The notes under the pieces: generated by a model
Seen by the model: the letters and a program-made list of their open reading frames with translations, nothing else
What the model was told of the DNA's origin: nothing
Database searches by the model: none
Origin: Gemmatimonadaceae bacterium
GTDB taxonomy: Bacteria; Gemmatimonadota; Gemmatimonadetes; Gemmatimonadales; Gemmatimonadaceae
Assembly (NCBI GenBank): GCA_024710705.1
Contig: JANJUF010000053.1
Location: 1-56,257 of the forward strand
DNA length: 56,257 bases
Direction: 5' to 3'
Made by a program: the position numbers and the translations under genes
Shown: piece after piece, positions 4,464 through 27,428 of the stretch
Layout: every line of letters starts with the position of its first letter
Position numbering within the stretch: the stretch's first letter is position 1

Positions 4464-4471
4464 CAAATCTA
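4464..4471 (-). promoter_or_regulatory. Putative -10 element, leaderless start of the 4458 gene
   Basis: On the minus strand the octamer TAGATTTG is followed by five bases and then ATG. It matches the Bacteroidota TAnnTTTG element perfectly. The GGAGGG abutting the ATG is too close to act as a normal ribosome-binding site. I see no obvious -35 hexamer. Confidence 0.6.
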
Positions 4472-4520
4472 AGCGAGTGACTCAGTCGCCCTCCGCTCGC
4501 CCTGCGGCCGCGTGTACGGG

Positions 4521-4528
4521 TATAATCC
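4521..4528 (+). promoter_or_regulatory. Perfect TATAAT -10 just before the sensor-kinase start
   Basis: TATAAT at 4521-4526 is followed by six bases and then GTG at 4533, the distance at which transcription would begin at the start codon. No Shine-Dalgarno sequence is present. No convincing -35 is visible upstream. It lies in the 74-bp divergent region shared with the minus-strand gene starting at 4458. Confidence 0.65.
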
Positions 4529-4532
4529 CCGC

Positions 4533-7500
4533 GTGACCACTCCCGCCGCGAACCCCTCGCAAGGATCGGCGCCTCGGCGTCGAGTGGCGCGGGAGCCCTG
4601 GCTGCTCGCTGCCGCCGCGTCGCTGGTTCTCGCGGCGGCCTGGATCCGTGTGCCCTCGGGGCCGCTGGCGGCGCTGCTGGCACTCATGCTCGCGCTCGTG
4701 CTCTGGCTCACCCAGGGGGTCGGGCGGGATGCGATTGCGCGGCGGGTGGGATTTGCGGTCGCGCTGGGCGCGCTGATCCTGACGGCAGCGCAGTACCATT
4801 TGGCGGTGCGGGCCCTCGATCGCGACGGCGAGGCGATTCGCCAGCGAACCGCCCGCCAGGCGGGGGCCGCACTCGCCGACGCGCTCTCGGTGGAGGCGCA
4901 GGAACTCCAGCGACTGGCCGAGGCCGCGCTCGCGGCCGCCGATGAGATCGACGATGCATTCGTCGCGCTCGCGCGACTCGTGCCTCCAGGAGGATCACGG
5001 GCAGTGATCCTCGCCCGCGACGGGCGGCCGGTGGCCTGGAGCGGGCGCCTGCTCGTCCCGCTGGATTCGCTTCCGGGCCCTGTCGGTCTGGTGGGCACTC
5101 CCTTCTACTTGGTGGCCTACGCGGTCGTGCAGCGTGGCGGCACGCTGGCGGTGGCGACGACCGTGTTGCACGCCGAACCTCCGGCCACGGCCCTCACCGC
5201 ATCGCTCTCCGGGCAGGTGGCGGCCCGATTCGGCGCCACCGGATTCGGCTTCGCGCCGCCCGAGGCGGTCACGATCGTTCCCGACGCCACACTGCTGCAG
5301 CTTGGGGGGGCACCGGTCCTCGCCACGCGCGCCATCATGCCGATGGTGGAGTCGCTCCGGAACCGAGCGTGGGAGCGCGCCCTGCCTCGTGCGGGGCTGG
5401 CGCTCGCCGGCATGCTGCTCCTGCTGCTCGCGGTGGCGTGGCGGCGCGCGACGGGCCTCCGTCCGCGCTTCATCGCACTTGCCGTGGGGCTCGCCGTCCC
5501 GGCGATCCTTCCGCTCAGCGTCTTCTCGAACCTCAGTACTTGGTTCGACCCGACGTTCTATCTGGTGCGCTCGGGCTGGCGATTCACGGCCAACGCCGGG
5601 GCGCTCGCGCTGACCGCGGCCCTCCTGCTGCTCGGGCTGCTCTCGGCGCGCCGGGCCCGCGCCCGTGCCATGACTCGCACACAGTCGTGGGTGGCCGTGG
5701 TCCTGGTGGCGGGACTCGGCCCCTTCCTGCTCCGAGAGCTTGCGGGTGGGCTCGAGGTGCCGAGCATCGGTGTGCCCATCACGCTCTGGCTGAGCTGGCA
5801 GGTCACGCTGTTCCTGGCCTCGGTGACGGTGCTCCTGCTGGGCGTCACTGCGGGACAGGGGGCCTTGGGACGCGATCGCGGTCTCCCGCTCTGGGCGGCC
5901 CCCTCGCTGGCGATCGTCGCGGCGCTGGTGGCGCCGCTATTGCTCGAGGCCCCGGGCCGCTTTCCGCAGGCCTACACGGCGCTGTGGGTGGTGGCCATCG
6001 CCGCCTTGGCCATCACGCGTCGCGCGCGCACCATCGTCATTCCGGTGGCGCTCGTCGCGGCCTGCGGTGCCACGACGCTGATTTGGTCGTCCACCGTGCG
6101 CGAGCGTGTGGAACTGGCGGTGCGTGATGTCCAGGGGCTCGCCCGTCCGGACGCCGACGCCGCGATCCTGCTGGACCGCTTCACCGAAGCGCTCGATCCG
6201 GCGCGCGCCGCGCGCTCGCGTGTGGATCTCCTCGTCCAGCTCGCGCGCACGGACCTCGCCGGCGCCGAGTATCCCACCGAAGTGTCCTCGTGGGCCGCCG
6301 ATGGCACCTTGATGGCGGACCTCGTGATCGGGCGCGCGCCGGGTGTCACGGCGGGCGTGAACCTCTTTGCCGCGGAGGCCCAGCGGACCAGGGTCCCGAC
6401 CCTGACCGAGGTGCGCGGCGATCCCGGCATCCATCTGGTGCTGGCCGTGCCGCACGCCGATGGCAGCGCCACCACGGCGGTGGTCGCGCCCCGCTCGCGG
6501 CTGGTGGCCCAGGATCCGTTCGGCGCCTTCATCGGGTTCTCGCCACCGCCCGCGCCAGAGCCGCCGTATCTGCTGCGCCTCGGCGACGTGACGGCACAGC
6601 CGCCGTCCCCACCGACCGCGCGCGGCGCGTGGACCCGCATCGGCAACGAGCTGCACGGCGACTGGCAACTGGCGAGCGCCGGCGGCATGAGTCGGCGGCT
6701 GCACGCCGTCGTGGAGCTGCGCTCCTTCGACATCCTCCTGACCCGCGGCGTGCTGCTCGTGTTGGTGAACCTCAGCGTGCTGGGCCTCATCTGGATGCTC
6801 ATCGTGTCCGCCGACGGCGCGTTGCCACGCTGGTGGCGGACACGTCGCCGCGAGGTCCTCAGCAGCTATCGAACACGCCTCACGGCGGCACTCTTCGTCT
6901 GCTTCCTCGTGCCGTCGCTGCTGTTTGGCTTCTGGTCGTTCCGGCGCCTGCAGGCCGATGACCGGCAGGCCCGTGACCTCCTGGTGCGCGAGACCCTGCG
7001 CGGCGTGGCGTCCACCGACTCGGTGCAACTCTCCGAGGCCGCGGCACGCTTCGACACACCGCTGTTCCTCTACGCCCAGGGATTGCTCGTCGGCACCAGC
7101 GATCCGCTGCTCGACGCCATCGCACCGGTGGGGCGACTGCTCCCGCCGAGCGTCTTGCGCACCTTGGCCGAGGGCGACGAGGTCACGACCGGGCGCGAGG
7201 AGGAGATCGGGCCGGCGGCGGTGCGCCTTGGCTACCGGGCCGCCACCGACTCGGCCGGGGTGCAGTACGTGCTCGCGGCCCCGGCTCGCCTCGACGAGCG
7301 GTTGCTGGATCGGCGACGCAACGACCTCGCGATGTTCCTGCTCTTCGCCCTGGCCCTCGGCGCCATCGGTGCGCTCTGGGCCAGCGGGGCGGCGTCGCGG
7401 CAACTCTCGCGGCCGATCAATGAACTGCGCGAATCGGCGCTCGCGCTCGCTCGCGGCACTCGCTCGCCAGCCTTGCGAGAGGACCCGCCGCTGGAGTTCA

Positions 7501-8567
7501 CGCCGGTGTTCCAGGCGTTCCGCCAGATGACGACCGACCTCGCCCAGAGCCGCGAAGCGCTCGAGACCGCCGAGCGACGGCTGGCCGCCACGCTCCGCAG
7601 TGTGGCGAGCGGCGTGCTGGCGGTGGATGAAGGGGACCGCGTCACCTTTGCCAATCCACGCGCCGAGGCGGTGCTCGGGGTCGCCTTGGCGGTCGGAGGG
7701 CGGCTTCCCGACGAGGCGCGGGCGCTCCTCGGGACGATGCTCGAGGACTTCCGCTCGGGCAACGGGGACGAAGGCGGCGGCGAGGTGGAGCAGGCCGGGC
7801 GCCGCCTCAGCATCCGTCTCACGCGGCTCTCCCCGGGCTCGCGCCGGACGGTGGTGACCATTGACGACGTCACCGAGGTGACCCGCGCCGAGCGTGTGCT
7901 GGCGTGGGGCGAGATGGCGCGGCAGGTGGCCCACGAGATCAAGAACCCCCTCACCCCGATGCGGCTGGGCATGCAGCACTTGCGAAGGGCCCGGCTCGAC
8001 GCGCGCGTGGATTTCGACAAGGTGCTCGAGGAGAACACGGCGCGGATCCTCGCGGAAATCGACCGGCTGGACGAGATCGCCCGCGCCTTCAGCCGCTACG
8101 GCACCGCGCCGATGCACGACGCTGCCCCCGAGGCGGTGGACGTCGGGGCGGTGGCCCGTGACGTCCTCGAGCTCGAGCGCATGGGGCAGGCCGACGTGCG
8201 CTGGGAGGGGGAGATCCCCGACCACACGGTGGTCGCGATGGCGCGGCCCCGGGAACTGCGCGAGGTGCTCCTGAACCTCCTGGAGAACGCCCGCTTGGCC
8301 GGTGCCCGTCGAGTGGTGCTGGCGCTGCGCGCGTTGGCCGAGGGGGGGGCCGAGATCGTGGTGACGGACGATGGCAGCGGCATCCCGCCCCATCTGCTGG
8401 AGCGGATCTTCGAACCGCATTTCTCCACGCGCACCAGCGGCAGCGGACTCGGGCTGGCCGTGAGCCGACGCATCATCAATGGATGGGGAGGCACCATCCT
8501 CGCCGAGAACTCCACGGGTGGCGGTGCGGTGCTCACCGTGCGGCTGGCTCCGGTGATCGACGGCTGA
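4533..8567 (+). CDS. Large membrane sensor histidine kinase (NtrY-like)
   Basis: 1344-residue sensor kinase. Three N-terminal membrane helices (about 17-90) precede an extracytoplasmic part. A cluster of hydrophobic helices (about 285-500), a second extracytoplasmic domain and further membrane helices (about 740 and 785) follow. A last membrane helix leads into a HAMP-like linker (~950-1005), a PAS domain (~1010-1110), HisKA with phospho-acceptor His1134 in AHEIKNPLTPM, and an ATPase domain with GSGLGLAVSRRI. HAMP-PAS-HisKA order and the HEIKNPLTP box are typical of NtrY. The GTG at 4533 is chosen over 4512 because a perfect TATAAT would overlap the longer coding sequence. A sigma-54 activator at 21688 could be its partner, but they are 13 kb apart. 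Confidence 0.88.
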   Translation: MTTPAANPSQGSAPRRRVAREPWLLAAAASLVLAAAWIRVPSGPLAALLALMLALVLWLTQGVGRDAIARRVGFAVALGALILTAAQYHLAVRALDRDGEAIRQRTARQAGAALADALSVEAQELQRLAEAALAAADEIDDAFVALARLVPPGGSRAVILARDGRPVAWSGRLLVPLDSLPGPVGLVGTPFYLVAYAVVQRGGTLAVATTVLHAEPPATALTASLSGQVAARFGATGFGFAPPEAVTIVPDATLLQLGGAPVLATRAIMPMVESLRNRAWERALPRAGLALAGMLLLLLAVAWRRATGLRPRFIALAVGLAVPAILPLSVFSNLSTWFDPTFYLVRSGWRFTANAGALALTAALLLLGLLSARRARARAMTRTQSWVAVVLVAGLGPFLLRELAGGLEVPSIGVPITLWLSWQVTLFLASVTVLLLGVTAGQGALGRDRGLPLWAAPSLAIVAALVAPLLLEAPGRFPQAYTALWVVAIAALAITRRARTIVIPVALVAACGATTLIWSSTVRERVELAVRDVQGLARPDADAAILLDRFTEALDPARAARSRVDLLVQLARTDLAGAEYPTEVSSWAADGTLMADLVIGRAPGVTAGVNLFAAEAQRTRVPTLTEVRGDPGIHLVLAVPHADGSATTAVVAPRSRLVAQDPFGAFIGFSPPPAPEPPYLLRLGDVTAQPPSPPTARGAWTRIGNELHGDWQLASAGGMSRRLHAVVELRSFDILLTRGVLLVLVNLSVLGLIWMLIVSADGALPRWWRTRRREVLSSYRTRLTAALFVCFLVPSLLFGFWSFRRLQADDRQARDLLVRETLRGVASTDSVQLSEAAARFDTPLFLYAQGLLVGTSDPLLDAIAPVGRLLPPSVLRTLAEGDEVTTGREEEIGPAAVRLGYRAATDSAGVQYVLAAPARLDERLLDRRRNDLAMFLLFALALGAIGALWASGAASRQLSRPINELRESALALARGTRSPALREDPPLEFTPVFQAFRQMTTDLAQSREALETAERRLAATLRSVASGVLAVDEGDRVTFANPRAEAVLGVALAVGGRLPDEARALLGTMLEDFRSGNGDEGGGEVEQAGRRLSIRLTRLSPGSRRTVVTIDDVTEVTRAERVLAWGEMARQVAHEIKNPLTPMRLGMQHLRRARLDARVDFDKVLEENTARILAEIDRLDEIARAFSRYGTAPMHDAAPEAVDVGAVARDVLELERMGQADVRWEGEIPDHTVVAMARPRELREVLLNLLENARLAGARRVVLALRALAEGGAEIVVTDDGSGIPPHLLERIFEPHFSTRTSGSGLGLAVSRRIINGWGGTILAENSTGGGAVLTVRLAPVIDG

Positions 8568-8568
8568 G

Positions 8569-8576
8569 TATCTTCC
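8569..8576 (+). promoter_or_regulatory. Putative -10 element before the Ser/Thr kinase
   Basis: TATCTTCC begins two bases after the TGA of the sensor kinase and is followed by seven bases and ATG at 8584. There is no ribosome-binding site, consistent with a leaderless mRNA for the kinase gene. Confidence 0.45.
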
Positions 8577-8583
8577 CACCCGA

Positions 8584-10356
<1,773 letters not shown>

Positions 10357-10365
10357 CGCGCTCCG

Positions 10366-12672: not shown

Positions 12673-12774
12673 CGGCAGGGAAGAGGGCGGCCCAACGGGA
12701 TGCCCGCCAGTCTGCGGGTGGGACCGCCGTCCGTCAACCACGTCGGGGTGGTCCCGTGTCGCTCCCGTTCTAGG

Positions 12775-12782
12775 TATGCTTC
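12775..12782 (+). promoter_or_regulatory. Putative -10 element before the TonB receptor
   Basis: TATGCTTC is followed by eight bases and ATG at 12791. It lies in the 118-bp divergent region between the hybrid kinase and the receptor. No Shine-Dalgarno sequence precedes the ATG. Confidence 0.45.
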
Positions 12783-12790
12783 GCCCATCC

Positions 12791-14926: not shown

Positions 14927-14945
14927 TTCCGCGCTGTCCGGCGAT

Positions 14946-14953
14946 TAGATTTC
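14946..14953 (+). promoter_or_regulatory. Putative -10 element before the SET-domain gene
   Basis: TAGATTTC is followed by six bases and ATG at 14960, with no ribosome-binding site. It sits 19 bases after the receptor stop, suggesting that the SET gene has its own leaderless promoter. Confidence 0.55.
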
Positions 14954-14959
14954 CGCGCC

Positions 14960-15475
14960 ATGCCCAATGCATTGGCTTTCGAGATTCGCGACTCCGTCAT
15001 CGCCGGCAAGGGGGCCTTCGCCCTCCGTCCCATCGCCAAGGGCGAGCGCCTCATCGAGTACGTCGGTGAGCGCATCAGCCACGCCGAGGCCGACCAGCGC
15101 TACGACGACGAGTCCATGGACGAGCACCACACCTTCCTCTTCACCGTCTCCAGCCGCACGGTGATTGACGCAACGGTGGACGGCAACGAGTCGCGCTATA
15201 TCAACCACTCCTGCGATCCCAACTGCGAGGCCGAGATCAGCAACGGCCGCGTGTGGATCTCGGCCATCGCCGACATCGCCGAGGGGGAGGAGCTGCACTA
15301 CGACTACGCCTACGAGCGCAGCGGCGACGAGACCGAGGAGGACGAGGCGCGCTACCGCTGCCTGTGCGGCACGGCCAAGTGCCGCGGCTCGATCATGGAG
15401 CCGGTGGCGACGTTCCGGGCGCGTCAGCGGAAGCGGCAAGCCACGCGCGCGCCGCGTCAACGTCAGCGCGCGTGA
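14960..15475 (+). CDS. SET-domain protein lysine methyltransferase with post-SET motif
   Basis: 171 residues, essentially one SET domain: GKGAFALRPIAKGE (16-29), YINHSCDPNCE (80-90) forming the pseudoknot and S-adenosylmethionine site, and DYAYE (115-119) carrying the catalytic tyrosine. It is followed by a Zn-binding post-SET-like CLCGTAKC (134-141) and a very basic tail rich in Arg/Gln (152-171). The family transfers methyl groups to lysine side chains. Bacteria have no conventional histones, so the target is unknown; the basic tail suggests contact with nucleic acid or an acidic partner. Its last 83 bases overlap, on the opposite strand, the end of the esterase gene. Domain identification is secure. 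Confidence 0.92.
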   Translation: MPNALAFEIRDSVIAGKGAFALRPIAKGERLIEYVGERISHAEADQRYDDESMDEHHTFLFTVSSRTVIDATVDGNESRYINHSCDPNCEAEISNGRVWISAIADIAEGEELHYDYAYERSGDETEEDEARYRCLCGTAKCRGSIMEPVATFRARQRKRQATRAPRQRQRA

Positions 15476-17187: not shown

Positions 17188-17191
17188 GGAA

Positions 17192-17199
17192 TGAAGATA
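17192..17199 (-). promoter_or_regulatory. Putative -10 element before the 17187 gene
   Basis: On the minus strand TATCTTCA is followed by four bases and ATG. No Shine-Dalgarno sequence is present. It lies in the 135-bp divergent region shared with the YifB/ComM gene. Confidence 0.5.
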
Positions 17200-17310
17200 G
17201 TGCGGAGCCGGGTGCGCTGACATCACCACGAAGTGGCAGCGTCGGGCGCCGCTGCGCTCCCGCGCTGACGCGCGCAGTGTCGCGGTGTCGGCGCACGGGC
17301 CGGCCCGCGC

Positions 17311-17316
17311 GATCAT
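17311..17316 (+). promoter_or_regulatory. Weak -10-like hexamer before yifB/comM
   Basis: GATCAT, four of six matches to TATAAT, is followed by six bases and GTG at 17323. The spacing equals that of the better leaderless promoters in the window, but the match alone is weak. Confidence 0.3.
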
Positions 17317-17322
17317 CGCCCC

Positions 17323-18855
17323 GTGCTTGCCGCCATCCGCTCCGCTGCCGTGCTCGGCGTGGACGCCTTCGCCGTCACGGTGGAGGTGGATGCCGCCGCG
17401 GGGCTCCCTGGATGGACCATGGTCGGCCTGCCCTCTGGCAGCGTGAAGGAGGCGCGCGAACGCGTCGGAGCCGCGCTCGTCAACGCCGGACTCCAGCTGC
17501 CGCCCCGACGATGGACCATCAACCTCTCGCCGGCCGACGTGCGCAAGGACGGCACGGCCTTCGACCTGCCGGTGGCGCTGGGGACGCTGGTGGCCAGTGG
17601 ACAGCTCGAGGCCGATGCGGTGGCAGGGCTGCTCTGCGTCGGCGAACTGGGACTCGACGGCGGCATCCGCCCCATTCGCGGGGCGCTGCCGCTCGCACGC
17701 GCGGCGCGCGATGCGGGCGCACGGGCCTTGGTGCTGCCGGCCGCCAACGCGCACGAGGCCGCCCTCCTGCGCGATGTGCGGCTCGCGCCCTGCGACTCCC
17801 TCGCCTCGCTGGTGGACCACCTCCGTGCCGGCACGCTGCCGTCAGCCCCCCCAGCGCCCACGCCAGAGATTGCGCCGGACCAAGCCTGCTTCAGCGAGGT
17901 GGTAGGACAACCGCTGGCCAAGCGCGCCCTCGAGATCGCCGCCGCCGGCGGGCACAACGTGTTGCTCATCGGCCCGCCAGGGGCGGGGAAGACGATGCTC
18001 GCGCGCCGTCTGCCGTCCATCCTGCCGCCGCTCGACGACGACGCGCTGCTCGAGGTCGTCGCCGTGCATTCCGTCGGCGGCATCCTTCCCACCGATCGCG
18101 TGCCCACGCGCACGCCGCCATTCCGCGCGCCGCACCACACGATCTCCCTGCCGGGCCTCATCGGCGGTGGCCCGGGGCCGCGCCCCGGCGAGGTCTCCCT
18201 CGCCCACCGCGGCGTGCTCTTCCTCGACGAACTGCTCGAGCTCCCGCGCTACGTGCTCGACGCCATGCGGCAGCCCCTCGAGGACGCCCGCGTCACGATC
18301 GTGCGAGCGGCGCAGTCGGTGGCCTTCCCGGCCCGCTTCCTCCTGGTCGGCGCCGCCAACCCCTGTCCCTGCGGGCACGATGGCGAGCCCACCGGACGCT
18401 GCCGCTGCGCCGCCGCGGAGATCGCGCGCTACCGCAGTCGCCTCAGCGGCCCGTTGGCCGATCGCATTGACCTGCATGTCCGCATCGGCGCCGTCGCCCT
18501 GGCCGCACTCGGGCAGATGGCGCAGGAGGAACCGAGCGCACACATTCGGGCCCGAGTGGTCGCGGCGCGGACGCGGCAGCGGGATCGCTACGCCGTGCTG
18601 CCCGGCGTGCGCGTGAACGGTGAGGCCCCCGGCCGTTGGCTCCAGCAGCACGGCGCGCTGGCCGCCGCCGCGCGGAGCCTGCTCGCCGAGGCGGCTGAGC
18701 GGCTCCGCCTCTCGGCGCGGGCTTTCCACCGCACCCTGCGGGTGGCCCGCACGGTGGCCGACCTCGAGGGCGAGGAGCGCATCGAGGCCTCGGCCATCGC
18801 CGAGGCGCTGCTCTTTCGCGGCAACGACTCGCAGGAGGGTGGGGCACCCCGATAG
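17323..18855 (+). CDS. comM: YifB/ComM family Mg-chelatase-like AAA+ ATPase
   Basis: 510 residues, the usual length of the family. An N-terminal ChlI/Lon-protease-like fold (MVGLPSGSVKEARERV, LSPADVRKDG) is followed by the AAA+ module with Walker A GPPGAGKT, Walker B LFLDELLE, and the Cys-rich NPCPCGH insert, then the C-terminal lid domain. ComM is a hexameric helicase that promotes branch migration during natural transformation in Vibrio; family members are widespread, and that role here is inferred. GTG start, no ribosome-binding site. Its TAG stop overlaps the -10 element proposed for the next gene. Confidence 0.93.
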   Translation: MLAAIRSAAVLGVDAFAVTVEVDAAAGLPGWTMVGLPSGSVKEARERVGAALVNAGLQLPPRRWTINLSPADVRKDGTAFDLPVALGTLVASGQLEADAVAGLLCVGELGLDGGIRPIRGALPLARAARDAGARALVLPAANAHEAALLRDVRLAPCDSLASLVDHLRAGTLPSAPPAPTPEIAPDQACFSEVVGQPLAKRALEIAAAGGHNVLLIGPPGAGKTMLARRLPSILPPLDDDALLEVVAVHSVGGILPTDRVPTRTPPFRAPHHTISLPGLIGGGPGPRPGEVSLAHRGVLFLDELLELPRYVLDAMRQPLEDARVTIVRAAQSVAFPARFLLVGAANPCPCGHDGEPTGRCRCAAAEIARYRSRLSGPLADRIDLHVRIGAVALAALGQMAQEEPSAHIRARVVAARTRQRDRYAVLPGVRVNGEAPGRWLQQHGALAAAARSLLAEAAERLRLSARAFHRTLRVARTVADLEGEERIEASAIAEALLFRGNDSQEGGAPR

Positions 18856-18860
18856 CTTCC
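18853..18860 (+). promoter_or_regulatory. Putative -10 element before the amidohydrolase
   Basis: TAGCTTCC, whose TAG is also the stop codon of the preceding gene, is followed by five bases and ATG at 18866. No ribosome-binding site is present. Confidence 0.45.
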
Positions 18861-18865
18861 GGGCG

Positions 18866-20596: not shown

Positions 20597-20615
20597 CGGC
20601 GGTGGGACGTCGGCT

Positions 20616-20623
20616 TAGCTTTC
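20616..20623 (+). promoter_or_regulatory. Putative -10 element before larE
   Basis: TAGCTTTC is followed by four bases and GTG at 20628, then an immediately adjacent ATG at 20631. No ribosome-binding site, suggesting a leaderless larE transcript. Confidence 0.55.
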
Positions 20624-20627
20624 CCCC

Positions 20628-21485
20628 GTGATGCCCGACGCCGTCCTTCCGCCTCGACTCGAGCCCGAACTCCTCGCGCGCGAGCAGGCCCTCATCGCCT
20701 GGTTTCGCGAGCGGGGCTCCGTGCTCGTCGGCTTCTCCGGCGGCGTGGATTCTGCCTACCTGGCCTGTGTCGCCGTCGCCGCTTTGGGGCCGGAGCGCAC
20801 GCTGGCGGTGATCGGGCGCAGCGCCTCCTACCCCGCCGCGCAGTGGGCCAATGCGCGCGCCGTGGCCGATCGCTTCGGGGTGCCGGTGCTGGAAGTGGAC
20901 ACGGACGAGCTCAACGACCCGCAGTACGCGGCGAATCCGACCAACCGTTGCTACTTCTGCAAGTCCGAACTGTGGAGCCGACTCGTGCCGCTGGCTGCGG
21001 AACGGGGCTTGGCGGTGGTGGTGGATGGCAGCAATGCCGACGACGGCAACGACCATCGCCCGGGCGCACAGGCGGCCCGCGAGCGGCGGGTCGCATCGCC
21101 GCTGGCCGAGTTGGGCTTCACCAAGGCGCAGATCCGCGCGCTGTCGCACGCGCGAGGGCTGCCCACGTGGGACCAACCGTCGTCGCCCTGCCTGTCGTCG
21201 CGGCTGCCGTATGGCACCGCAGTAACGCCGGAACGGTTGCAGCAGGTCGAGCGCGCCGAGTCCGCGCTGCGTGCGCTCGGGATTTCCGGTGACCTGCGGG
21301 TTCGGCACTTGGGCGCGCGGGCGCGCGTGGAACTCGGCGGCGCGATGCTCGCGGTGTGGTCCGAGGACGCCGCGCGTGCCCCGCTGGAGGCCGCGGTGCG
21401 GCAGGCGGGATTCGACGAGGTCGAGCTGCACCCGTTCCGTTCTGGCGCGCTGAACGTGCTCGCGGGCATCCCCGGAGCGGGCTGA
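20628..21485 (+). CDS. larE: ATP-dependent sacrificial sulfur transferase LarE
   Basis: 285 residues. LarE adenylates and sulfurates the pyridinium carboxylate in making the nickel-pincer cofactor of lactate racemase-type enzymes. Seen here: the PP-loop SGGVDS (37-42), NRCYFCKSEL with a CxxC pair (Cys108, Cys111), GSNADDGNDHRPG (135-146) and PSSPCLSSRLPYG with Cys188 at the position of the sacrificial/active-site cysteine. The three cysteines suggest the variant that carries an Fe-S cluster rather than giving up its own cysteine sulfur. No larA, larB or larC is in the window. GTG (20628) or ATG (20631) start, differing by one residue. Followed with one-base overlap by a small membrane protein. 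Confidence 0.9.
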   Translation: MMPDAVLPPRLEPELLAREQALIAWFRERGSVLVGFSGGVDSAYLACVAVAALGPERTLAVIGRSASYPAAQWANARAVADRFGVPVLEVDTDELNDPQYAANPTNRCYFCKSELWSRLVPLAAERGLAVVVDGSNADDGNDHRPGAQAARERRVASPLAELGFTKAQIRALSHARGLPTWDQPSSPCLSSRLPYGTAVTPERLQQVERAESALRALGISGDLRVRHLGARARVELGGAMLAVWSEDAARAPLEAAVRQAGFDEVELHPFRSGALNVLAGIPGAG

Positions 21486-21691
21486 TGCTCTTCGGATGCG
21501 TTGGCCGCATCGTGATGGCAGCGATACTGCTGATTGCCGGTGCCGTGCTCTGGCACTTCCGTGACGCCTGGGTGCCGAAGGCGAAGGCGCTGCTCGAGAA
21601 GAAGGCCTCCGAGATCGAGATTGACGTGCCAGGAGTCACCCAGCTGCCGCCCGGGTATACCCTCCGGTACATCACCCCGGAGATCGCGTGA
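21485..21691 (+). CDS. Small single-pass membrane protein
   Basis: 68 residues. One membrane helix (about residues 8-24, VMAAILLIAGAVLWHF) precedes a short, charged, Lys/Glu-rich tail. No known family. The ATG overlaps the larE stop (TGATG), and its own stop overlaps the next gene (GTGA), so it is translated as a link between larE and the sigma-54 activator. The tight coupling supports a real gene; the function is unknown. Confidence 0.7.
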   Translation: MLFGCVGRIVMAAILLIAGAVLWHFRDAWVPKAKALLEKKASEIEIDVPGVTQLPPGYTLRYITPEIA

Positions 21692-23058
21692 GCCGTCGGG
21701 TCCTGATCGTGGACGACGAATCGGGGATCCGCGCCGCGCTGGCGCAGCTCCTCGAGTACGAAGGGTACGATGTGAAGGCCGTCGCCAGCGGCCACGAGGG
21801 ACTCGCCTCGTACGAGCAGTGGCGCCCGCAACTCGTCTTCCTCGACGTGAAGATGGAGGGCATTGACGGGCTGGAGACGCTGAAGCGGATCCGCGCCCTC
21901 GACCCCGCGGCCGTGGTCGTGATGATCTCCGGCCACGCGACCATCCAGGACGCCGTCGGCGCGACGCACCTCGGGGCCTACGACATCCTCGAAAAGCCGC
22001 TCGACACCGATCGCATCCTCGTCACGCTGCGCAACGCCATCGGGCACCTCGACCTGCGCGAGGAGAACGCGCGATTGCGGCAGTCGGTGGAGCGGCACGG
22101 CGAGATCGTCGGGGCCTCGGAGGCGGTGCGCGGGCTGGTGCAGCAGATCGAGCGGGTGGCGGCCACCGGGGCGCGCGTGCTCATCACCGGAGAGAACGGC
22201 ACGGGCAAGGAGCTGGTGGCGCGCGCGTTGCACGCGCAGTCGGGCAAGGCCAAGGCCCCGTTCGTGGAAGTGAACTGCGCGGCCATCCCGTCCGAACTCA
22301 TCGAGAGCGAGCTGTTCGGCCACATGAAGGGCTCGTTCACTGGCGCCATCCAGGACCGGGCCGGCAAGTTCGAGCAGGCCGACGGCGGGACGCTGTTCCT
22401 GGACGAGATCGGCGACATGTCGCTGGCGGCGCAGGCCAAGGTCCTCCGCGTGCTTCAGGAGGGCGAAGTCACGCGCATCGGCGGCGCGAAGTCGCGCAAG
22501 GTGGACGTGCGCATCATCGCCGCCACCAACAAGCGGCTCGACGAGGAGATCGCGGCCGGGCGCTTCCGCGAGGACCTGTACTATCGGCTGAACGTGGTGC
22601 CCATCACGGTCCCGCCGCTGCGCGAGCGCCGGGAGGACATCCCGATGCTGGTGCAACATTTCCTCGAACGGCTCAGTAAGGAGAGCGGGCTCCCGCTGCG
22701 GACGGTGGACGACGAGGCCATGGCCCGGCTCGCGTCCCTCGAGTGGCAGGGGAACATCCGCGAGCTGCGCAACACGGTGGAGCGGCTGCTGATCCTCGCG
22801 AGCGGGCCGCGGATTGTCCGCACCGACGTGGACCGCCTCGTGGGGACGCGGGCTGGCGATGCGACGACCGGGCTTGGCTCGTTGGACGCCTTCACGACAT
22901 ACGAGGAGTTCAAGTTGGCGGCCGAGCGGGCCTTCCTGACGGCGAAGCTCAAGCAGCACGACTGGAACGTGGCCGAGACGGCGCGGGCGATTGATATGCC
23001 CCGGTCGAACCTGTACAAGAAGATCGAGCGCCACGGGCTGGCGCGGGGGCAGGGATGA
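21688..23058 (+). CDS. Sigma-54-dependent response regulator (NtrC/NtrX family)
   Basis: 456 residues. Receiver domain with Asp53 in FLDVKM and Lys103; AAA+ domain with Walker A GENGTGKE (168-175), the sigma-54 loop GSFTGA (215-220), Walker [10 protein letters not shown] and the R-finger region [10 protein letters not shown]-terminal Fis-type helix-turn-helix (~420-450, [22 protein letters not shown]). It would open sigma-54 promoters when phosphorylated. The loop is GSFTGA rather than the canonical GAFTGA. The 1344-residue NtrY-like kinase at 4533 is a candidate partner, by inference only. GTG start overlapping the preceding stop. Confidence 0.93.
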
Positions 23059-23513
23059 GCGAGCGCGACTGGGATGCCGAGCTGCGGAAAATTGACGCCG
23101 AGATGGCGAAGTCGGCGGGGCGCCCGCCGACCGCGCCGACGCCGAGTGCCAGCGCACCGGTGTCCGTGCCGTCGGGCGGCGCGGGATTTCCGGTGGCCTC
23201 GCCGGCCACGACCAACGTGGGCGTGTACGCACGGCTCCTGCTTGCCGTCGCCATCGGCGTGGGCATCATCTTCTGGCCCTACGCGAATCGCTGCGGTCTC
23301 GGGCTCGCCGGCTACCTCGGTGCCGTCGGCATCGTGGTCATCTCCGGTGCCTGGTCGGCGGTCTGGACCTTCCGCCACCGCGCCGCGCGCGCCCACGTTC
23401 TCTCCCTGCTGTTGGTGCTCTGGGGCCTCGTGCTCGCGGGCCTCGACGTCCTGCCGCGCATCGGGTACGCCATCCCCACCGCCGAGCATCCGGCGACCTG
23501 GAGTTGCAGCTAG
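23055..23513 (+). CDS. Predicted membrane protein, three helices
   Basis: 152 residues. A charged, Pro/Ala/Ser-rich N-terminal ~55 residues are followed by three hydrophobic helices (roughly 59-76, 84-103 and 112-134). I recognise no family. It starts inside the stop of the sigma-54 activator (ATGA) and ends one base from the convergent acetyltransferase gene, so it is the last member of the larE cluster. Confidence 0.7.
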   Translation: MSERDWDAELRKIDAEMAKSAGRPPTAPTPSASAPVSVPSGGAGFPVASPATTNVGVYARLLLAVAIGVGIIFWPYANRCGLGLAGYLGAVGIVVISGAWSAVWTFRHRAARAHVLSLLLVLWGLVLAGLDVLPRIGYAIPTAEHPATWSCS

Positions 23514-23514
23514 G

Positions 23515-24009
23515 CTAGCCGCCTGGCCGCGGCCGTTCGAGGCGCATCACGAGGCAGTCGTCCTCGCCGAACATTCGTCGCTCCACCGCGGCAAACCCGA
23601 GGCGCTCATAAAACTGGATGGCGCGGGTGTTGCTCGCGAGCGGGTCAATGATGATGGCGCTCACGTCAGCGCTGGCGAAACAGCGCGAGATGGCGAGCCG
23701 CATCACCTCGGTGCCGATGCCCTGGCCGCGATAGTCAGGCTCGCCGATCCAGATGTCGATGGCGCGCAGCCCAGCGGGCACGTCGCCCCAGTAGTGGCTC
23801 TCCTCGGTCCGTGGGTCGATGATCTGCACGAAGCCGATCGGCTCCCCATCCCATTCGGCGATGAGCTGCTCGCGCCAGGGAGGCGTCCGGACCAGTTCGT
23901 CTTCCCAGTGCCAGTCGTCGTTGGGATCGGATGCCAGGACGTCTGGATCTTCGTCCCAGCGCCGCAGCAGGGCGAGGTCGTCGAGGGCCGCAGGGCGGAG
24001 GGCGATCAT
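23515..24009 (-). CDS. GNAT acetyltransferase resembling AAC(6') enzymes
   Basis: 164 residues, one GNAT domain. The acetyl-CoA motif A is DYRGQGIGTEVM (92-103), and IDPLASNTRAIQFYERLGF (121-139) forms motif B. The sequence also shows GEPIGFVQIIDP and YWGDVPAGLRAIDIWIG, which parallel the order and spacing of the AAC(6')-Ib aminoglycoside 6'-N-acetyltransferase group from memory. It could therefore acetylate an aminoglycoside-like amine, but many relatives act on other small amines or on siderophore precursors. Single gene, divergent with only 19 bases from the aldehyde dehydrogenase start. Confidence 0.85.
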   Translation of the reverse strand: MIALRPAALDDLALLRRWDEDPDVLASDPNDDWHWEDELVRTPPWREQLIAEWDGEPIGFVQIIDPRTEESHYWGDVPAGLRAIDIWIGEPDYRGQGIGTEVMRLAISRCFASADVSAIIIDPLASNTRAIQFYERLGFAAVERRMFGEDDCLVMRLERPRPGG

Positions 24010-24016
24010 CGTCGGT

Positions 24017-24024
24017 TAGATTGA
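24017..24024 (+). promoter_or_regulatory. Putative -10 element in a 19-bp divergent gap
   Basis: TAGATTGA is followed by four bases and ATG at 24029. On the opposite strand the same bases read TCAATCTA, with TCTAAC (a poor -10) five bases before the acetyltransferase ATG. Any -35 for either gene must lie inside the other gene's coding sequence. Confidence 0.5.
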
Positions 24025-24028
24025 TGGG

Positions 24029-25510
24029 ATGCGTACCTTCCAAAACTACATCGCCGGGGCGTGGGTCGATCCGTCCACGGGCAAGCACTTCGACAACACC
24101 AATCCCGCCGATACCACGGACGTGATCGGCCGCTTTCCGCTCTCCGGCGCGGCCGACGTGGCGCGGGCGGTGGAATCCGCCAAGCTCGGCTTCGAGAAGT
24201 GGAAGCGCACGCCGGCCCCGGCGCGCGGCGACGTGCTGCGGCGCGTCGGCGAGATCCTGGTGGCCCGCAAGGAAGAACTCGCCGACCTGATGACGCGCGA
24301 GATGGGCAAGCCCCTCGCCGAGACGCGTGGGGACGTGCAGGAAGGCATTGATACCGCCTTCTACGCGGCCACCGAGGGACGGCGGCTCTTCGGCCACACC
24401 GTGCCCAGCGAGCTGCGCGACAAGTGGGCGATGAGCTACCGCCGCCCCATCGGCGTGGCCGGCATCATCACTCCGTTCAACTTCCCGCTGGCGATTCCCA
24501 CGTGGAAGATCTTCCCGGCGCTGGTCTGCGGCAACGCGGTGGTGTTCAAGCCGGCCGAGGACGTGCCGCACACGGGACACGTGTTCGTGGAGATCCTGCT
24601 CGAGGCCGGACTCCCGCCCGAGGTGATCCAGCTCGTGCACGGCGACGGGGCCGTGGGCGCGGCGATCGTTGAGCATCCGGATGTGGCCTTGGTCTCGTTC
24701 ACCGGCTCCACCGAGACGGGGAGCAAGGTGGGCGAGACCTGCGGCCGCCTGCACAAGCGGCTCTCGCTCGAGATGGGCGGCAAGAACGCGCAGATCGTGC
24801 TCGACGACGCGAAGCTCGATCTGGCGCTGGACGGGGTGCTCTGGGGCGCCTTCGGCACCACCGGGCAGCGGTGCACCGCCACGAGCCGGCTGATCCTGCA
24901 GGAGGGCATCCACGACCGCTTTGTCGCGATGCTCGTGGAGCGTGCCAAGGCGCTCAAGCTCGGCGACGGCCGCAAGGCGGGGACGGACGTGGGCCCGGTG
25001 ATTCACGCCGACAGCATGTCGAAGATCGAGCGCTATGTGGAGATCGGGCTCACCGAGGGCGCGACGCTGGCGCTCGGAGGCCGTCGCGCCACCGGCGCGG
25101 GGCTCGACAAGGGGTTCTTCTTCGAGCCGACGATCTTCACCGGCGTGCAGGCCGGGTCGCGGCTCGAGCAGGAGGAGATCTTCGGCCCTGTGCTCAGCGT
25201 GATCAAGGTGAAGGACGCCGCCGAGGCCTTCCGCGTGAACAACGGCGTGAAGTACGGGCTCTCCAGCTCGCTGTACACGCAGGACGTGAACCTCGCCTTC
25301 CAGGCCCTGCAGTCGCTCGACAACGGCATCACGTACATCAACGCCCCGACCATCGGCGCCGAGGCCCACATGCCGTTCGGTGGCGTGAAGCAGACCGGGA
25401 ATGGCCACCGCGAAGGCGGGTGGGAGGTGTACGAGTTCTATTCCGAGACCAAGGTCGGCTACGTGGATTTCTCGGGGACGCTGCAGCGGGCGCAGATCGA
25501 CAACTACTAG
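24029..25510 (+). CDS. NAD(P)-dependent aldehyde dehydrogenase
   Basis: 493 residues, full length for the family. The oxyanion/cofactor segment PFNFPLAIPTWK, FTGSTETGSKVG, catalytic Glu248 in LEMGGKNAQ, nucleophile Cys282 in GTTGQRCTATSR and EEIFGPVLSVIK are all present. It oxidises an aldehyde to its acid with NAD or NADP. The C-terminal YSETKVGYVDFSGTLQRAQ resembles the alpha-ketoglutaric-semialdehyde/ALDH7-like branch, but the substrate is not certain. Single gene, apparently leaderless, divergent from the acetyltransferase. Confidence 0.93.
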   Translation: MRTFQNYIAGAWVDPSTGKHFDNTNPADTTDVIGRFPLSGAADVARAVESAKLGFEKWKRTPAPARGDVLRRVGEILVARKEELADLMTREMGKPLAETRGDVQEGIDTAFYAATEGRRLFGHTVPSELRDKWAMSYRRPIGVAGIITPFNFPLAIPTWKIFPALVCGNAVVFKPAEDVPHTGHVFVEILLEAGLPPEVIQLVHGDGAVGAAIVEHPDVALVSFTGSTETGSKVGETCGRLHKRLSLEMGGKNAQIVLDDAKLDLALDGVLWGAFGTTGQRCTATSRLILQEGIHDRFVAMLVERAKALKLGDGRKAGTDVGPVIHADSMSKIERYVEIGLTEGATLALGGRRATGAGLDKGFFFEPTIFTGVQAGSRLEQEEIFGPVLSVIKVKDAAEAFRVNNGVKYGLSSSLYTQDVNLAFQALQSLDNGITYINAPTIGAEAHMPFGGVKQTGNGHREGGWEVYEFYSETKVGYVDFSGTLQRAQIDNY

Positions 25511-25586
25511 TCACCACGGTTGCAGCGGGCCCCTTGCCCGATTTGCCCAGTTCGGTGTACTTCCAGTGGTCCGCCTGGGAGGACGC

Positions 25587-26348
25587 ATGACCGAGCCGGG
25601 AACGCCTGAGACCGAACCAAGCGAACGGACGGGGCCGATCGCGGCCGCGCCGCGGACGCGCTTCCGTGTCCTGCGCGTGGCCTGGGAATGGGCCAAGTCG
25701 GTCCAGCTCGCCATCATCCTGTTCCTGTTGGTGCGGGCCTTCCTCGTGGAGGCCTTCAAGATCCCCAGCGGCTCCATGGAGGGGACGCTGCTCGTCGGCG
25801 ATTTCCTGCTCGTGAACAAGATGGTCTATGGGGCCGAAGTCCCCTTCGTCGGGAAGAACCTCCCCGCCGTGCGCCGTCCGGCGCTCGGGGACGTGATGGT
25901 CTTTCAGTGGCCCGAGGATCCCCAGAAGAACTTCGTGAAGCGCCTGGTCGGCATCGGCGGCGACACGCTCGAGATGCGGGCGGGCGCCCTGCGCCGGAAC
26001 GGCGAACCGGTCCACGAACCCTATGCCGTGCGCGGCCTGGCCATGCGCGAGCCGGCCAGCGACGAGTTCCGCTGGCAGCGCGACTTCCTCGCCCCGGCCG
26101 TGTCGCCGAACGGATACAACCCCACCCGCAATGATTGGGGACCGCTGGTTGTCCCCGCCGGCCACTACTTCGTGCTCGGCGACAATCGCGACAACTCGCT
26201 GGACAGCCGCTACTGGGGGTTCGTACCGGACTCCCTCGTGCGCGGCAGCCCGATCTTCGTCTACTACAGCTACTCGCCCGACAGCGGTCGGGCCTTGGAC
26301 TGGCTCACCCGCGTCCGATGGACTCGGTTGGGAGAACTGATCCGCTAG
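25587..26348 (+). CDS. lepB: Signal peptidase I
   Basis: 253 residues. One N-terminal membrane helix (~37-54) anchors a periplasmic serine-lysine protease: nucleophile Ser63 in PSGSM, general base Lys118 in VKRLVGIGGD, and box E GDNRDNSLDSR. It removes signal peptides from exported proteins, including those encoded around it, which share an unusual Gln at +1. The ATG at 25587 has a GGGAGG five bases upstream; the longer frame overlaps the previous gene. A hairpin follows 10 bases after the stop. Confidence 0.96.
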   Translation: MTEPGTPETEPSERTGPIAAAPRTRFRVLRVAWEWAKSVQLAIILFLLVRAFLVEAFKIPSGSMEGTLLVGDFLLVNKMVYGAEVPFVGKNLPAVRRPALGDVMVFQWPEDPQKNFVKRLVGIGGDTLEMRAGALRRNGEPVHEPYAVRGLAMREPASDEFRWQRDFLAPAVSPNGYNPTRNDWGPLVVPAGHYFVLGDNRDNSLDSRYWGFVPDSLVRGSPIFVYYSYSPDSGRALDWLTRVRWTRLGELIR

Positions 26349-26357
26349 GCATTGGGG

Positions 26358-26383
26358 CGCGTCGGGGGTGCTTCCCCCGCGCG
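26358..26383 (+). terminator. GC hairpin between lepB and the sigma factor gene
   Basis: Ten base pairs (26358-26368 with 26374-26383, one bulged T at 26362) enclose a TGCTT loop. No T-run follows. It is either a weak terminator for lepB or part of the leader of the sigma-factor gene. Confidence 0.35.
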
Positions 26384-26444
26384 TGAACGCACTGCACATT
26401 CCGCCAGCGAGCAGTCGGAAGATCACCGCAGCGAAGGTGAGGGT

Positions 26445-27302
26445 ATGGCCCGAGCGCAGCACAAGCGAAGCTCGTTCGACGAAGGGTCACTCGACCAATA
26501 CCTCCGCGACATCAGCGTCTATCCGCTGATCTCCCGTGAGGAGGAAGTCCGACTCGCGCAGCGGATCCGCCAGGACGACCAGGAGGCGCTCGATACCCTC
26601 GTGCGCTCGAACCTCCGCTTCGTCGTCTCCGTCGCCAAGAAGTACCAGAATCAGGGCGTGAACCTCTCCGACCTGATCAACGAGGGCAACCTCGGCCTCA
26701 TCCGCGCGGCCCACAAGTTCGACGAGACCAAGGGGATCAAGTTCATCTCCTACGCGGTGTGGTGGATCCGCCAGGCGATCCTCCAGGCCCTCGCCGAGCA
26801 GAGCCGCATCGTGCGAGTGCCGCTGAACCGCGCCGGCACGCTGCACCGCATCGGCAAGCGCGCCAACGCGCTGTTGCAGGAACTGGGACGCGAGGCCACG
26901 CACGCCGAGATCGCCGACGGCATGGAGATCACCGAGGAGGAAGTCGCCAAGACGATGGCGATCTCCCAGACCCACCTCTCGCTCGACGCCCCCATGGCGC
27001 CCGGCGAGGACAACCGCCTCCTCGACTACATCCCCGACACCCAGAGTGCCACGCCCGACGAGGAGACCTTCGAGAAGGCCCTCGCCGACTCGGTGCACGA
27101 GGCGCTGGCGGGACTGAAGGAGCGTGAGGCCAAGATCCTCCGGCTCTACTTCGGGCTCGACGGCTCGGAGCCCATGACCCTCGAGCAGATCGGCGCGGTG
27201 CTCAACATCACCCGCGAGCGGGTGCGGCAGATCAAGGAGAAGGCCCTCTCGCGGCTGCGGCACGTGTCGCGGGCGCGGGCTCTGGAGTCGTACCTGGGTT
27301 AG
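26445..27302 (+). CDS. rpoD: Primary (sigma-70 family) RNA polymerase sigma factor, short form
   Basis: 285 residues. Regions 1.2 to 4.2 are complete: SLDQYLRDISVYPLISREEE (1.2), LRFVVSVAKKYQNQG and DLINEGNLGLIRAAHKFD (2.1-2.2), IKFISYAVWWIRQAILQAL (2.3-2.4), region 3, and region 4.2 EQIGAVLNITRERVRQIKEK. It lacks region 1.1 and the large non-conserved insert of proteobacterial RpoD, so it has the size and layout of the Bacteroidota primary sigma factor. The ATG at 26445 has AAGGTGAGG four bases upstream; a longer frame from 26352 lacks a signal for initiation. A strong terminator follows. It is probably the housekeeping sigma, although a second one could exist elsewhere. Confidence 0.93.
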   Translation: MARAQHKRSSFDEGSLDQYLRDISVYPLISREEEVRLAQRIRQDDQEALDTLVRSNLRFVVSVAKKYQNQGVNLSDLINEGNLGLIRAAHKFDETKGIKFISYAVWWIRQAILQALAEQSRIVRVPLNRAGTLHRIGKRANALLQELGREATHAEIADGMEITEEEVAKTMAISQTHLSLDAPMAPGEDNRLLDYIPDTQSATPDEETFEKALADSVHEALAGLKEREAKILRLYFGLDGSEPMTLEQIGAVLNITRERVRQIKEKALSRLRHVSRARALESYLG

Positions 27303-27309
27303 GACGGAC

Positions 27310-27336
27310 TTGCCACAGAGGCACAGAGGCACGAAG
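27310..27336 (+). repeat. CACAGAG repeat arm, single copy
   Basis: This stretch begins TTGCCACAGAGGCACAGAG and matches both arms of the palindromic element at 36160-36297. Here only one arm is present and it runs directly into the terminator hairpin. Confidence 0.75.
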
Positions 27337-27363
27337 GGCCCCCGAGCGGGGGGCCCTTTCTTG
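27334..27363 (+). terminator. Intrinsic terminator after the sigma factor gene
   Basis: AAGGGCCCCC pairs perfectly with GGGGGCCCTT around a short loop, followed by TCTTGTTT. It lies about 30 bases past the sigma-factor stop and is the clearest classical terminator in the window. Confidence 0.85.
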
Positions 27364-27420
27364 TTTCCCCCTGCCGCGTCTTCGCCCTACGTGTCCTCGT
27401 CTCCCCGCAGTGAATGCGGT

Positions 27421-27428
27421 TAGTTTTG
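27421..27428 (+). promoter_or_regulatory. Putative -10 element before yajQ
   Basis: TAGTTTTG, a perfect TAnnTTTG match, is followed by three bases and ATG at 27432. It lies downstream of a terminator and upstream of the seven-gene operon. No ribosome-binding site. Confidence 0.6.

What the first reader, a model, noticed from the sequence alone, without database searches (positions are those of the whole stretch)
4464..27428. A -10-like element abuts start codons of first genes: widespread leaderless mRNAs
Ten genes share an octamer resembling TAnnTTTG, ending 3 to 8 bases before the start codon. They are the starts at 4458, 4533, 8584, 12791, 14960, 17187, 18866, 20628, 24029 and 27432 (octamers TAGATTTG, TATAATCC, TATCTTCC, TATGCTTC, TAGATTTC, TATCTTCA, TAGCTTCC, TAGCTTTC, TAGATTGA, TAGTTTTG). 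None has a Shine-Dalgarno sequence at normal spacing. Genes inside operons lack the element and instead overlap the previous stop. This contrast suggests it is a promoter that places transcription at the start codon.
Basis: partly seen in the sequence, partly recalled or inferred. Interest (0 to 1): 0.8.

Follow-up and report, generated by a model that had tools for sequence, protein, structure and literature searches.

The report
Promoter element fused to start codons
In this uncultured bacterium (a Gemmatimonadota relative), a minority of genes at the head of an operon carry the promoter's key element about 12 bases before the start codon, so their messenger RNA probably begins at the start codon itself; the arrangement is known in other phyla, but the promoter type here resembles that of the Bacteroidota.

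Summary
In detail: all ten octamers lie where stated; 10 of 10 fit TANNNT, 8 TANNTT, 2 TANNTTTG. The signal is genome-wide. In 814 kb of this genome, TANNTT peaks with its T at -12: 14 of 359 operon-head genes against 0.95 expected per position; operon-internal genes have it in 6 of 241. Blind motif discovery recovers it. Heads with the motif have no Shine-Dalgarno sequence (0 of 34); 86 of 325 others do. It is conserved at orthologous starts in the genus (60 of 89 sites; control words 0-8). Position -12 to -7 puts the transcription start at or near the start codon: a leaderless promoter. It is a minority mode (about 10-30% of heads) and, by pattern counts, confined to one order of the phylum. 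The window encodes the best-conserved sigma factor (26445-27302): 285 aa, no region 1.1, Bacteroidota-type, which would explain TAnnTTT rather than TATAAT. Leaderless -10 genes are known in Actinobacteria and Deinococcota; Gemmatimonadota were not named in what I searched. There are no transcription-start data, so the mechanism is inferred.

The parts
4464..4471 (-). -10-like octamer TAGATTTG, T at -13, before the minus-strand gene starting at 4458
   Evidence: TANNTT before the orthologous start in 13 of 13 same-genus sites
4521..4528 (+). -10-like octamer TATAATCC, T at -12 of GTG 4533 (histidine kinase); canonical TATAAT form
   Evidence: TANNNT in 9 of 10 orthologue sites, TANNTT in 2 of 10; start uncertain
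8569..8576 (+). -10-like octamer TATCTTCC, T at -15 of ATG 8584 (protein kinase); begins 1 nt after the upstream gene's stop
   Evidence: TANNTT in 10 of 13 orthologue sites, TANNNT in 12 of 13
12775..12782 (+). -10-like octamer TATGCTTC, T at -16 of ATG 12791 (TonB-dependent receptor); weakest case
   Evidence: TANNTT in 1 of 13 orthologue sites, TANNNT in 8 of 13; start uncertain (differ)
14946..14953 (+). -10-like octamer TAGATTTC, T at -14 of ATG 14960 (SET-domain protein)
   Evidence: 8 of 8 orthologue sites
17192..17199 (-). -10-like octamer TATCTTCA, T at -12 of minus-strand ATG 17187
   Evidence: 11 of 12 orthologue sites
18853..18860 (+). -10-like octamer TAGCTTCC, T at -13 of ATG 18866 (amidohydrolase); overlaps the end of the upstream gene
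   Evidence: 1 of 4 orthologue sites by strict count; start uncertain
20616..20623 (+). -10-like octamer TAGCTTTC, T at -12 of GTG 20628 (LarE) or -15 of ATG 20631
   Evidence: 14 of 16 orthologue sites
24017..24024 (+). -10-like octamer TAGATTGA, T at -12 of ATG 24029 (aldehyde dehydrogenase)
   Evidence: 22 of 78 family-wide orthologues have TANNTT
27421..27428 (+). -10-like octamer TAGTTTTG, T at -11 of ATG 27432 (YajQ/DUF520)
   Evidence: 6 of 29 family-wide orthologues have TANNTT
26445..27302 (+). best-conserved sigma-70 factor, 285 aa, regions 1.2, 2, 3, 4, no region 1.1: probable primary sigma reading the element

Best explanation
The octamer is the -10 element (the -7 element in Bacteroidota nomenclature) of housekeeping promoters, placed with its first T about 12 nt before the start codon. 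RNA polymerase carrying a short, Bacteroidota-type primary sigma factor melts this TAnnTT(T) box and starts RNA at, or within about 0-4 nt of, the first base of the start codon. The resulting leaderless mRNA has no Shine-Dalgarno sequence and is probably translated by recognition of its 5'-terminal AUG/GUG. Genes further inside operons rely on stop-start overlap and/or Shine-Dalgarno sequences. Shown: motif, position, head-gene bias, Shine-Dalgarno exclusion, conservation, sigma type. Inferred: that this sigma reads it, the exact start of transcription, and leaderless translation.
For: Octamers verified. TANNTT with T at -12: 14 of 359 own head genes vs 0.95 per control position, p = 2e-12; 38 of 527 in relatives (aldehyde dehydrogenase genes left out) vs 1.10, p = 2e-44 (relatives are not independent). 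Blind EM finds TAnnTT at -12 in both sets, lambda 0.30 (own; first T only 44%) and 0.20 (relatives); log-likelihood 140.6 vs 33.1 +/- 3.7 in 15 row shuffles (max 43.7) and 64.5 (GC-rich motif) at -60..-35. TANNTTT followed by ATG at gap 5: 45 cases vs 1.3 per offset at gaps 15-44 in 80 loci (aldehyde dehydrogenase genes included there). TAGNTTTN5ATG: 18 vs 0 for the reversed pattern in this genome, 198 vs 11 in the 17 same-genus genomes, a match in 40 of 41 genomes. Motif and Shine-Dalgarno exclude each other: 0 of 34 vs 86 of 325 (p = 8e-5); relatives 0 of 63 vs 85 of 464 (p = 1e-5). Footprints at eight window starts in the genus: 34 of 40 plus 26 of 49. Sigma: found in 30 of 30 family genomes; best hits outside the phylum among plasmid records are Bacteroidota (Hymenobacter, Bacteroides, Phocaeicola, Parabacteroides 55-57%); tree split 100/100; region 2.3-2.4 28 of 30 residues as in Bacteroides, 17 of 30 as in Paenibacillus. 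Bacteroidota: sigma without region 1.1, TAnnTTTG with T at -12, 4-5 nt to the start (PMC6847099, passages): the same geometry puts +1 on the A of ATG. Weak T enrichment at -35/-34 in relatives (37% each).
Against: No transcription-start or ribosome data. Only a minority of head genes have the element. Spacing in the window is -11 to -16, looser than the -12 peak, so several mRNAs may have leaders of a few nt. Two window cases are poorly conserved (12791, 18866), and family-wide the aldehyde dehydrogenase and YajQ elements are kept in only 22 of 78 and 6 of 29. The same sigma occurs in families of other orders where the start-adjacent pattern shows no excess, so sigma type alone does not explain the placement. 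Operon-internal genes have some of it too: 6 of 241 at -15..-11, more than the roughly 0.2 expected from control positions. Two Prevotella sigmas (50% and 45%) do not stand clearly above Bacillota RpoD (42-46%) in similarity.
Confidence: 0.87

Rival explanations
1. A sub-variant that overlaps with the best explanation: the element is a -10 box, but transcription starts a few bases earlier or later, giving very short (1-10 nt) leaders translated by 70S scanning or standby binding rather than true leaderless initiation.
For: Spacing in the window ranges from -11 to -16; own-genome TANNNT counts spread over -11 to -15 (20 at -12, 7-8 at each of -11, -13, -14, -15).
Against: The peak is at exactly -12 in both gene sets, the position of a -10 box when +1 is the A of ATG.
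Confidence: 0.3
2. The element is a translational signal in the mRNA: an AU-rich or Kozak-like sequence before the start codon replacing Shine-Dalgarno, as in Bacteroidota.
For: Bacteroidota lack Shine-Dalgarno sequences and tune starts by nearby bases (PMC6847099, start of abstract, passages).
Against: A translational signal should serve operon-internal genes too, but only 6 of 241 have it; the pattern is TA, two free bases, TT, with G commonest at -10, not an A-rich stretch; permuted words are less or not enriched.
Confidence: 0.06
3. The element is a binding site of one regulator or an alternative sigma factor's regulon rather than the housekeeping promoter.
For: The genome has 22 sigma-70-family matches over the cut-off (26 in all), and the left half of the window is unusually rich in the element.
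Against: It precedes functionally mixed genes (kinases, LarE, aldehyde dehydrogenase, SET protein) and recurs over the genome and order; its consensus resembles that of the Bacteroidota primary sigma, which is the type of the best-conserved sigma here.
Confidence: 0.07
4. Chance or artefact of start-codon choice in a GC-rich genome where rare AT-rich words fall in intergenic gaps.
Against: Sharp peak with start-blind calling, gene-caller-free counts, shuffle and reversed-pattern controls, and orthologue footprints.
Confidence: 0.01

Closest known systems
Leaderless genes with a -10 motif next to the ORF in Deinococcota (PMC12340547, abstract and passages; PMC3160421, passages)
   Same: TANNNT a few bases before the ORF, no Shine-Dalgarno needed, high-GC genome; shown experimentally there to act as the -10 region.
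   Different: Here the box is TAnnTT(T), the sigma is Bacteroidota-type without region 1.1, and the share of genes is lower (about 30% of ORFs on average in Deinococcota).
TA-led leaderless genes of Actinobacteria and other phyla (PMC3160421, passages)
   Same: TANNNT at about 12 bp before the translation start, read as leaderless.
   Different: Gemmatimonas is not named in that text (its 'Other Bacteria' row, 8 of 20 genomes, could contain it); high-GC motifs there have little-informative middle bases, and no TT(T) preference is mentioned in the passages seen.
Bacteroidota primary sigma (sigma ABfr) and its -7 element TAnnTTTG (PMC6847099, PMC12632263, passages)
   Same: Short sigma without region 1.1, near-identical region 2.3-2.4, TAnnTTT with T at -12.
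   Different: In Flavobacterium johnsoniae 87% of predicted leaders exceed 10 nt and G at -10/-9 is avoided; here the element abuts starts, G is commonest at -10 and C at -5.

Membership tests
Bacterial leaderless (TA-led) genes | -10-like TANNNT about 10-12 bp before the start codon, more than chance | tested here: met
Bacterial leaderless (TA-led) genes | No Shine-Dalgarno sequence at these genes | tested here: met
   0 of 34 own and 0 of 63 relatives' head genes with TANNTT at -15..-11; with the looser TANNNT at -16..-10, 1 of 50 own
Bacterial leaderless (TA-led) genes | 5' end of mRNA at or within a few nt of the start codon | not testable with these tools
   no transcript data
Bacterial leaderless (TA-led) genes | Element concentrated at first genes of transcription units | tested here: met
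   34 of 359 heads vs 6 of 241 internal, p = 7e-4; relatives 63 of 527 vs 6 of 244, p = 5e-6
Bacteroidota-type primary sigma | Regions 1.2-4 without region 1.1 | tested here: met
   domains; length and alignment
Bacteroidota-type primary sigma | Groups with Bacteroidota RpoD apart from canonical RpoD | tested here: met
   caveats: 17-row tree, two divergent sigmas of this genome fall on the same side of the split, long branches are flagged, and two Prevotella hits are only 45-50% identical
Bacteroidota-type primary sigma | Is the essential housekeeping sigma | tested here: inconclusive
   30 of 30 family genomes, 75-96% identity in the 29 others (2 of them in pieces at contig ends), far above other sigmas; no RpoD-length sigma seen among the 26 matches, in a genome 87.6% complete; essentiality not testable
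Bacteroidota promoter | TAnnTTTG -7 element | tested here: inconclusive
   TAnnTT(T) yes; final G no: C 50-59% at -5
Bacteroidota promoter | Mostly leadered transcripts | not testable with these tools
   needs transcription-start mapping; motif placement suggests otherwise for a minority of genes

The most novel reading that the evidence does not exclude
The order of this genome combines a Bacteroidota-type primary sigma with a composite signal in which promoter and translation start are one: the TAnnTTT box sits so that +1 is the A of AUG. The sigma is spread over the phylum, while the placement arose in this order, giving a dual regime (leaderless operon heads, Shine-Dalgarno or overlap-coupled internal genes) on ribosomes that keep a normal anti-Shine-Dalgarno tail. 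It may show an intermediate between Shine-Dalgarno-led lineages and the Shine-Dalgarno-free Bacteroidota.
Probability: 0.5. Interest if true: 0.62.

Novelty: new variant of a known kind. Interest (0 to 1): 0.5.

Why it matters
If true, it adds a phylum to those with a substantial leaderless gene set and ties the motif to a sigma type, which helps promoter prediction in Gemmatimonadota and start-codon annotation: a start-adjacent TAnnTT marks a likely true start. It also gives a natural comparison, the same sigma type with and without start-adjacent promoters in different orders, for asking how leaderless genes arise and how lineages lose Shine-Dalgarno dependence. Gemmatimonadetes are reported to have Shine-Dalgarno sequences in only 22% of mRNAs (PMC10783764, section 16 read); leaderless heads could explain part of the rest.

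Tried and rejected
Rejected: 'first genes are leaderless' as a general rule, since most head genes lack the element. Rejected: TAnnTTTG as consensus; G at the end is in the minority. Considered and not supported: canonical TATAAT as the general form (TATNNT shows no excess in the 80 loci); 4533 is an exception, its TATAAT being present in 4 of 10 orthologue sites (counted from the lines). Considered: loss of the anti-Shine-Dalgarno tail; rejected, since 7 of 7 full-length 16S loci from 6 relatives' genomes end in GGATCACCTCCTT; 14 of the 21 genomes searched, this one included, had no 16S match and one more had only fragments.

A test for the broader pattern TANNNTN6ATG outside the order found no hidden excess (15 out-of-order genomes, 3747 vs 4095 reversed; summed by hand), but it is weak: the 6 in-order genomes give only 1342 vs 1150, and 1 of those 6 (G051) has fewer than its control, another (G054) about equal. 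Other spacings outside the order were not tested. EM on operon-internal genes gave codon-periodic patterns. Rfam and tRNA scans of the window were empty.

Limits: gene calls come from my own caller without upstream information, so wrong starts dilute the counts. 'Head gene' means a divergent neighbour or a same-strand gap of at least 25 nt; 42 own genes with gaps of 11-24 and 55 at contig edges were left out. In the relatives' set, 80 genes flagged as aldehyde dehydrogenases were left out. In footprint counts, orthologues aligned only from beyond residue 35 or 40, duplicates of one site and sites near a locus end were dropped; spacing allowed was 11-15 or 11-16; the genomes are related, so sites are not independent. 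Some control words overlap the motif itself (TTNNAT within TTAGATT, ATNNTT within TATCTTT), which I think is why TTNNATT also peaks (14 at gap 5 vs 4.7). The sigma tree used 5 of 7 picked relatives; the script missed L206 and L227. Only 25 of 547 plasmid records were listed.
Full report
What was checked. The window is a whole contig (C60) of a 3.0-Mb, 87.6%-complete genome in 137 contigs. The 80 best relatives of its aldehyde dehydrogenase (74-90% identity) are nearly all titled Gemmatimonas, Gemmatimonadaceae or Gemmatimonadetes, so the organism belongs to that part of the Gemmatimonadota. All ten octamers are present as written; the genes at 4458 and 17187 run on the minus strand.

Is it more than chance? 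I called genes with a script using coding potential only and asked what lies upstream. In 814 kb of this genome (697 genes), TANNNT with its T at -16..-10 occurs 52 times before 359 operon-head genes (12.5 expected from control positions), 20 of them at -12; before 241 operon-internal genes it occurs 7 times (1.0 expected). TANNTT carries most of the excess: 14 at -12 against 0.95 (p = 2e-12); in 80 loci of relatives, without the aldehyde dehydrogenase genes that had brought them in, 38 of 527 against 1.10. Counting any candidate start near the called one gives 62 of 359 head genes with TANNNT at -15..-11, against 11, 24 and 21 in three control windows, an excess of about 12%. Blind EM finds TAnnTT at -12 and assigns it to 30% (own; a looser motif, first T 44%) and 20% (relatives) of head genes, with likelihood far above shuffles. 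Of the permuted words, TTNNNA does not rise (12 vs 10.6); ATNNNT and TNNNAT rise modestly (26 vs 15.4 and 23 vs 10.1), without a comparable peak at one position.

Gene-caller-free tests agree. In the 80 loci, TANNTTT is followed by ATG at a gap of 5 in 45 cases against 1.3 per offset at gaps 15-44. TAGNTTTN5ATG occurs 18 times in this genome and its reverse never; 198 vs 11 over the 17 genomes of the genus (sums by hand).

Conservation. In same-genus orthologues the box stays 11-16 nt before an in-frame start while its surroundings change: 13 of 13 for 4458, 8 of 8 for 14960, 11 of 12 for 17187, 14 of 16 for 20628, 10 of 13 for 8584; 1 of 4 for 18866, 2 of 10 for 4533 (TANNNT 9 of 10) and 1 of 13 for 12791 (TANNNT 8 of 13). 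Together 60 of 89, against 6, 8 and 0 for TTNNAT, ATNNTT and TTNNTA. Over the wider family the aldehyde dehydrogenase has it in 22 of 78 and YajQ in 6 of 29: the mode seems to be gained and lost.

Translation side. Motif-bearing heads have no Shine-Dalgarno word (0 of 34), other heads have one in 86 of 325, operon-internal genes in 90 of 241; a control stretch further upstream has one in 31 of 359 and 25 of 241. Relatives' 16S genes keep the anti-Shine-Dalgarno tail (7 of 7 loci). So two regimes appear to coexist: leaderless heads, and Shine-Dalgarno-led or overlap-coupled genes. A published survey gives Gemmatimonadetes 22% of mRNAs with Shine-Dalgarno (PMC10783764, section 16).

Which sigma reads it? 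The window itself holds the likely answer. The gene at 26445-27302 encodes a 285-residue sigma-70 factor with regions 1.2, 2, 3 and 4 and no region 1.1. It is found in 30 of 30 family genomes at 75-96% identity, the next sigma being near 50% in most, and in 54 of 61 phylum genomes at E <= 1e-90; the 7 misses are 5 genomes of family f7 and 2 of f5, all outside the order. Among the 26 sigma matches of this genome none has RpoD length; the one long open frame (C41) ends in what I read as a short ECF-type sigma. Outside the phylum its best hits in the plasmid collection are Bacteroidota RpoD proteins (Hymenobacter, Bacteroides, Phocaeicola, Parabacteroides, 55-57%), ahead of Bacillota, Fusobacteriota and Deinococcota (41-46%); two Prevotella sigmas give 50% and 45%. 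A 17-row tree separates it and the Bacteroidota from canonical RpoD with full support (it flags long branches, and two divergent sigmas of this genome fall on the same side). In region 2.3-2.4, which reads the -10 box (established knowledge), it shares 28 of 30 residues with Bacteroides and 17 of 30 with Paenibacillus; 27 of 30 family loci have exactly this sequence and 3 differ by one A/S change. The Bacteroidota primary sigma lacks region 1.1 and reads TAnnTTTG with T at -12, 4-5 nt before the transcription start (PMC6847099, passages). The same geometry here puts the start on the A of ATG.

Where does it occur? TANNTTTN5ATG against its reverse: 1109:316 in 37 genomes of the window's family (36 exceed their control), 364:133 in 21 and 11:1 in 2 genomes of two other families of the order (20 and 2 exceed), but 343:328 in 35 genomes of other orders of the class and 315:395 in 6 of another class. 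So the placement looks order-specific, although the sigma is also present in most genomes tested outside the order. The reversed pattern is a rough control, and out-of-order genomes were tested only at this spacing and, weakly, with a broader box.

How it probably works. Shown: the motif, its position, its bias to operon heads, exclusion of Shine-Dalgarno, conservation, and the sigma type. Inferred: that this sigma reads it, that transcription starts at or within 0-4 nt of the start codon, and that ribosomes initiate on the 5'-terminal start codon.

What is known. TA-like signals at about -12 marking leaderless genes were described in 207 of 953 bacterial genomes, with Actinobacteria and Deinococcus-Thermus singled out (PMC3160421, passages), and the start-adjacent -10 motif was shown experimentally in Deinococcus (PMC12340547, abstract and passages). 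The name Gemmatimonas or Gemmatimona- has no occurrence in these two main texts; the second includes a bacteria-wide motif scan whose supplementary figure I did not see. Full-text searches for leaderless plus Gemmatimona (all 5 papers listed), Gemmatimonas with promoter terms (15 of 1,294 listed), and Gemmatimona with Shine-Dalgarno, translation-initiation and promoter-motif terms (15 of 1,949) or transcription-start terms (10 of 222) listed none whose title or abstract start describes this; most subscription papers and all supplements were out of reach. The kind is known; the lineage and the pairing with a Bacteroidota-type sigma and box appear new within those searches.

Noticed in passing
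26445-27302 (+): The best-conserved sigma-70 factor, Bacteroidota-type without region 1.1, is encoded next to the YajQ gene and lies close to YajQ in several relatives (for example G015, G051, G060).
   Followed up: yes
8565-8584: The -10 box before the protein-kinase gene follows the upstream gene's TGA stop after one base (TGAGTATCTTC); TGAGTA is kept in 7 of 13 same-genus sites (counted from the lines).
   Followed up: partly
4521-4533: The histidine-kinase start has a canonical TATAAT box, present in 4 of 10 same-genus sites, unlike the TAnnTTT form elsewhere.
   Followed up: no
28000-56257: No head gene called in the right half of the window carries the element (0 of 5), in contrast to the left half (6 of 15); cause unknown.
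   Followed up: no
14960-15475: A small bacterial SET-domain protein (Pfam SET, E = 8e-26) whose start-adjacent promoter box is kept in 8 of 8 same-genus sites.
   Followed up: no
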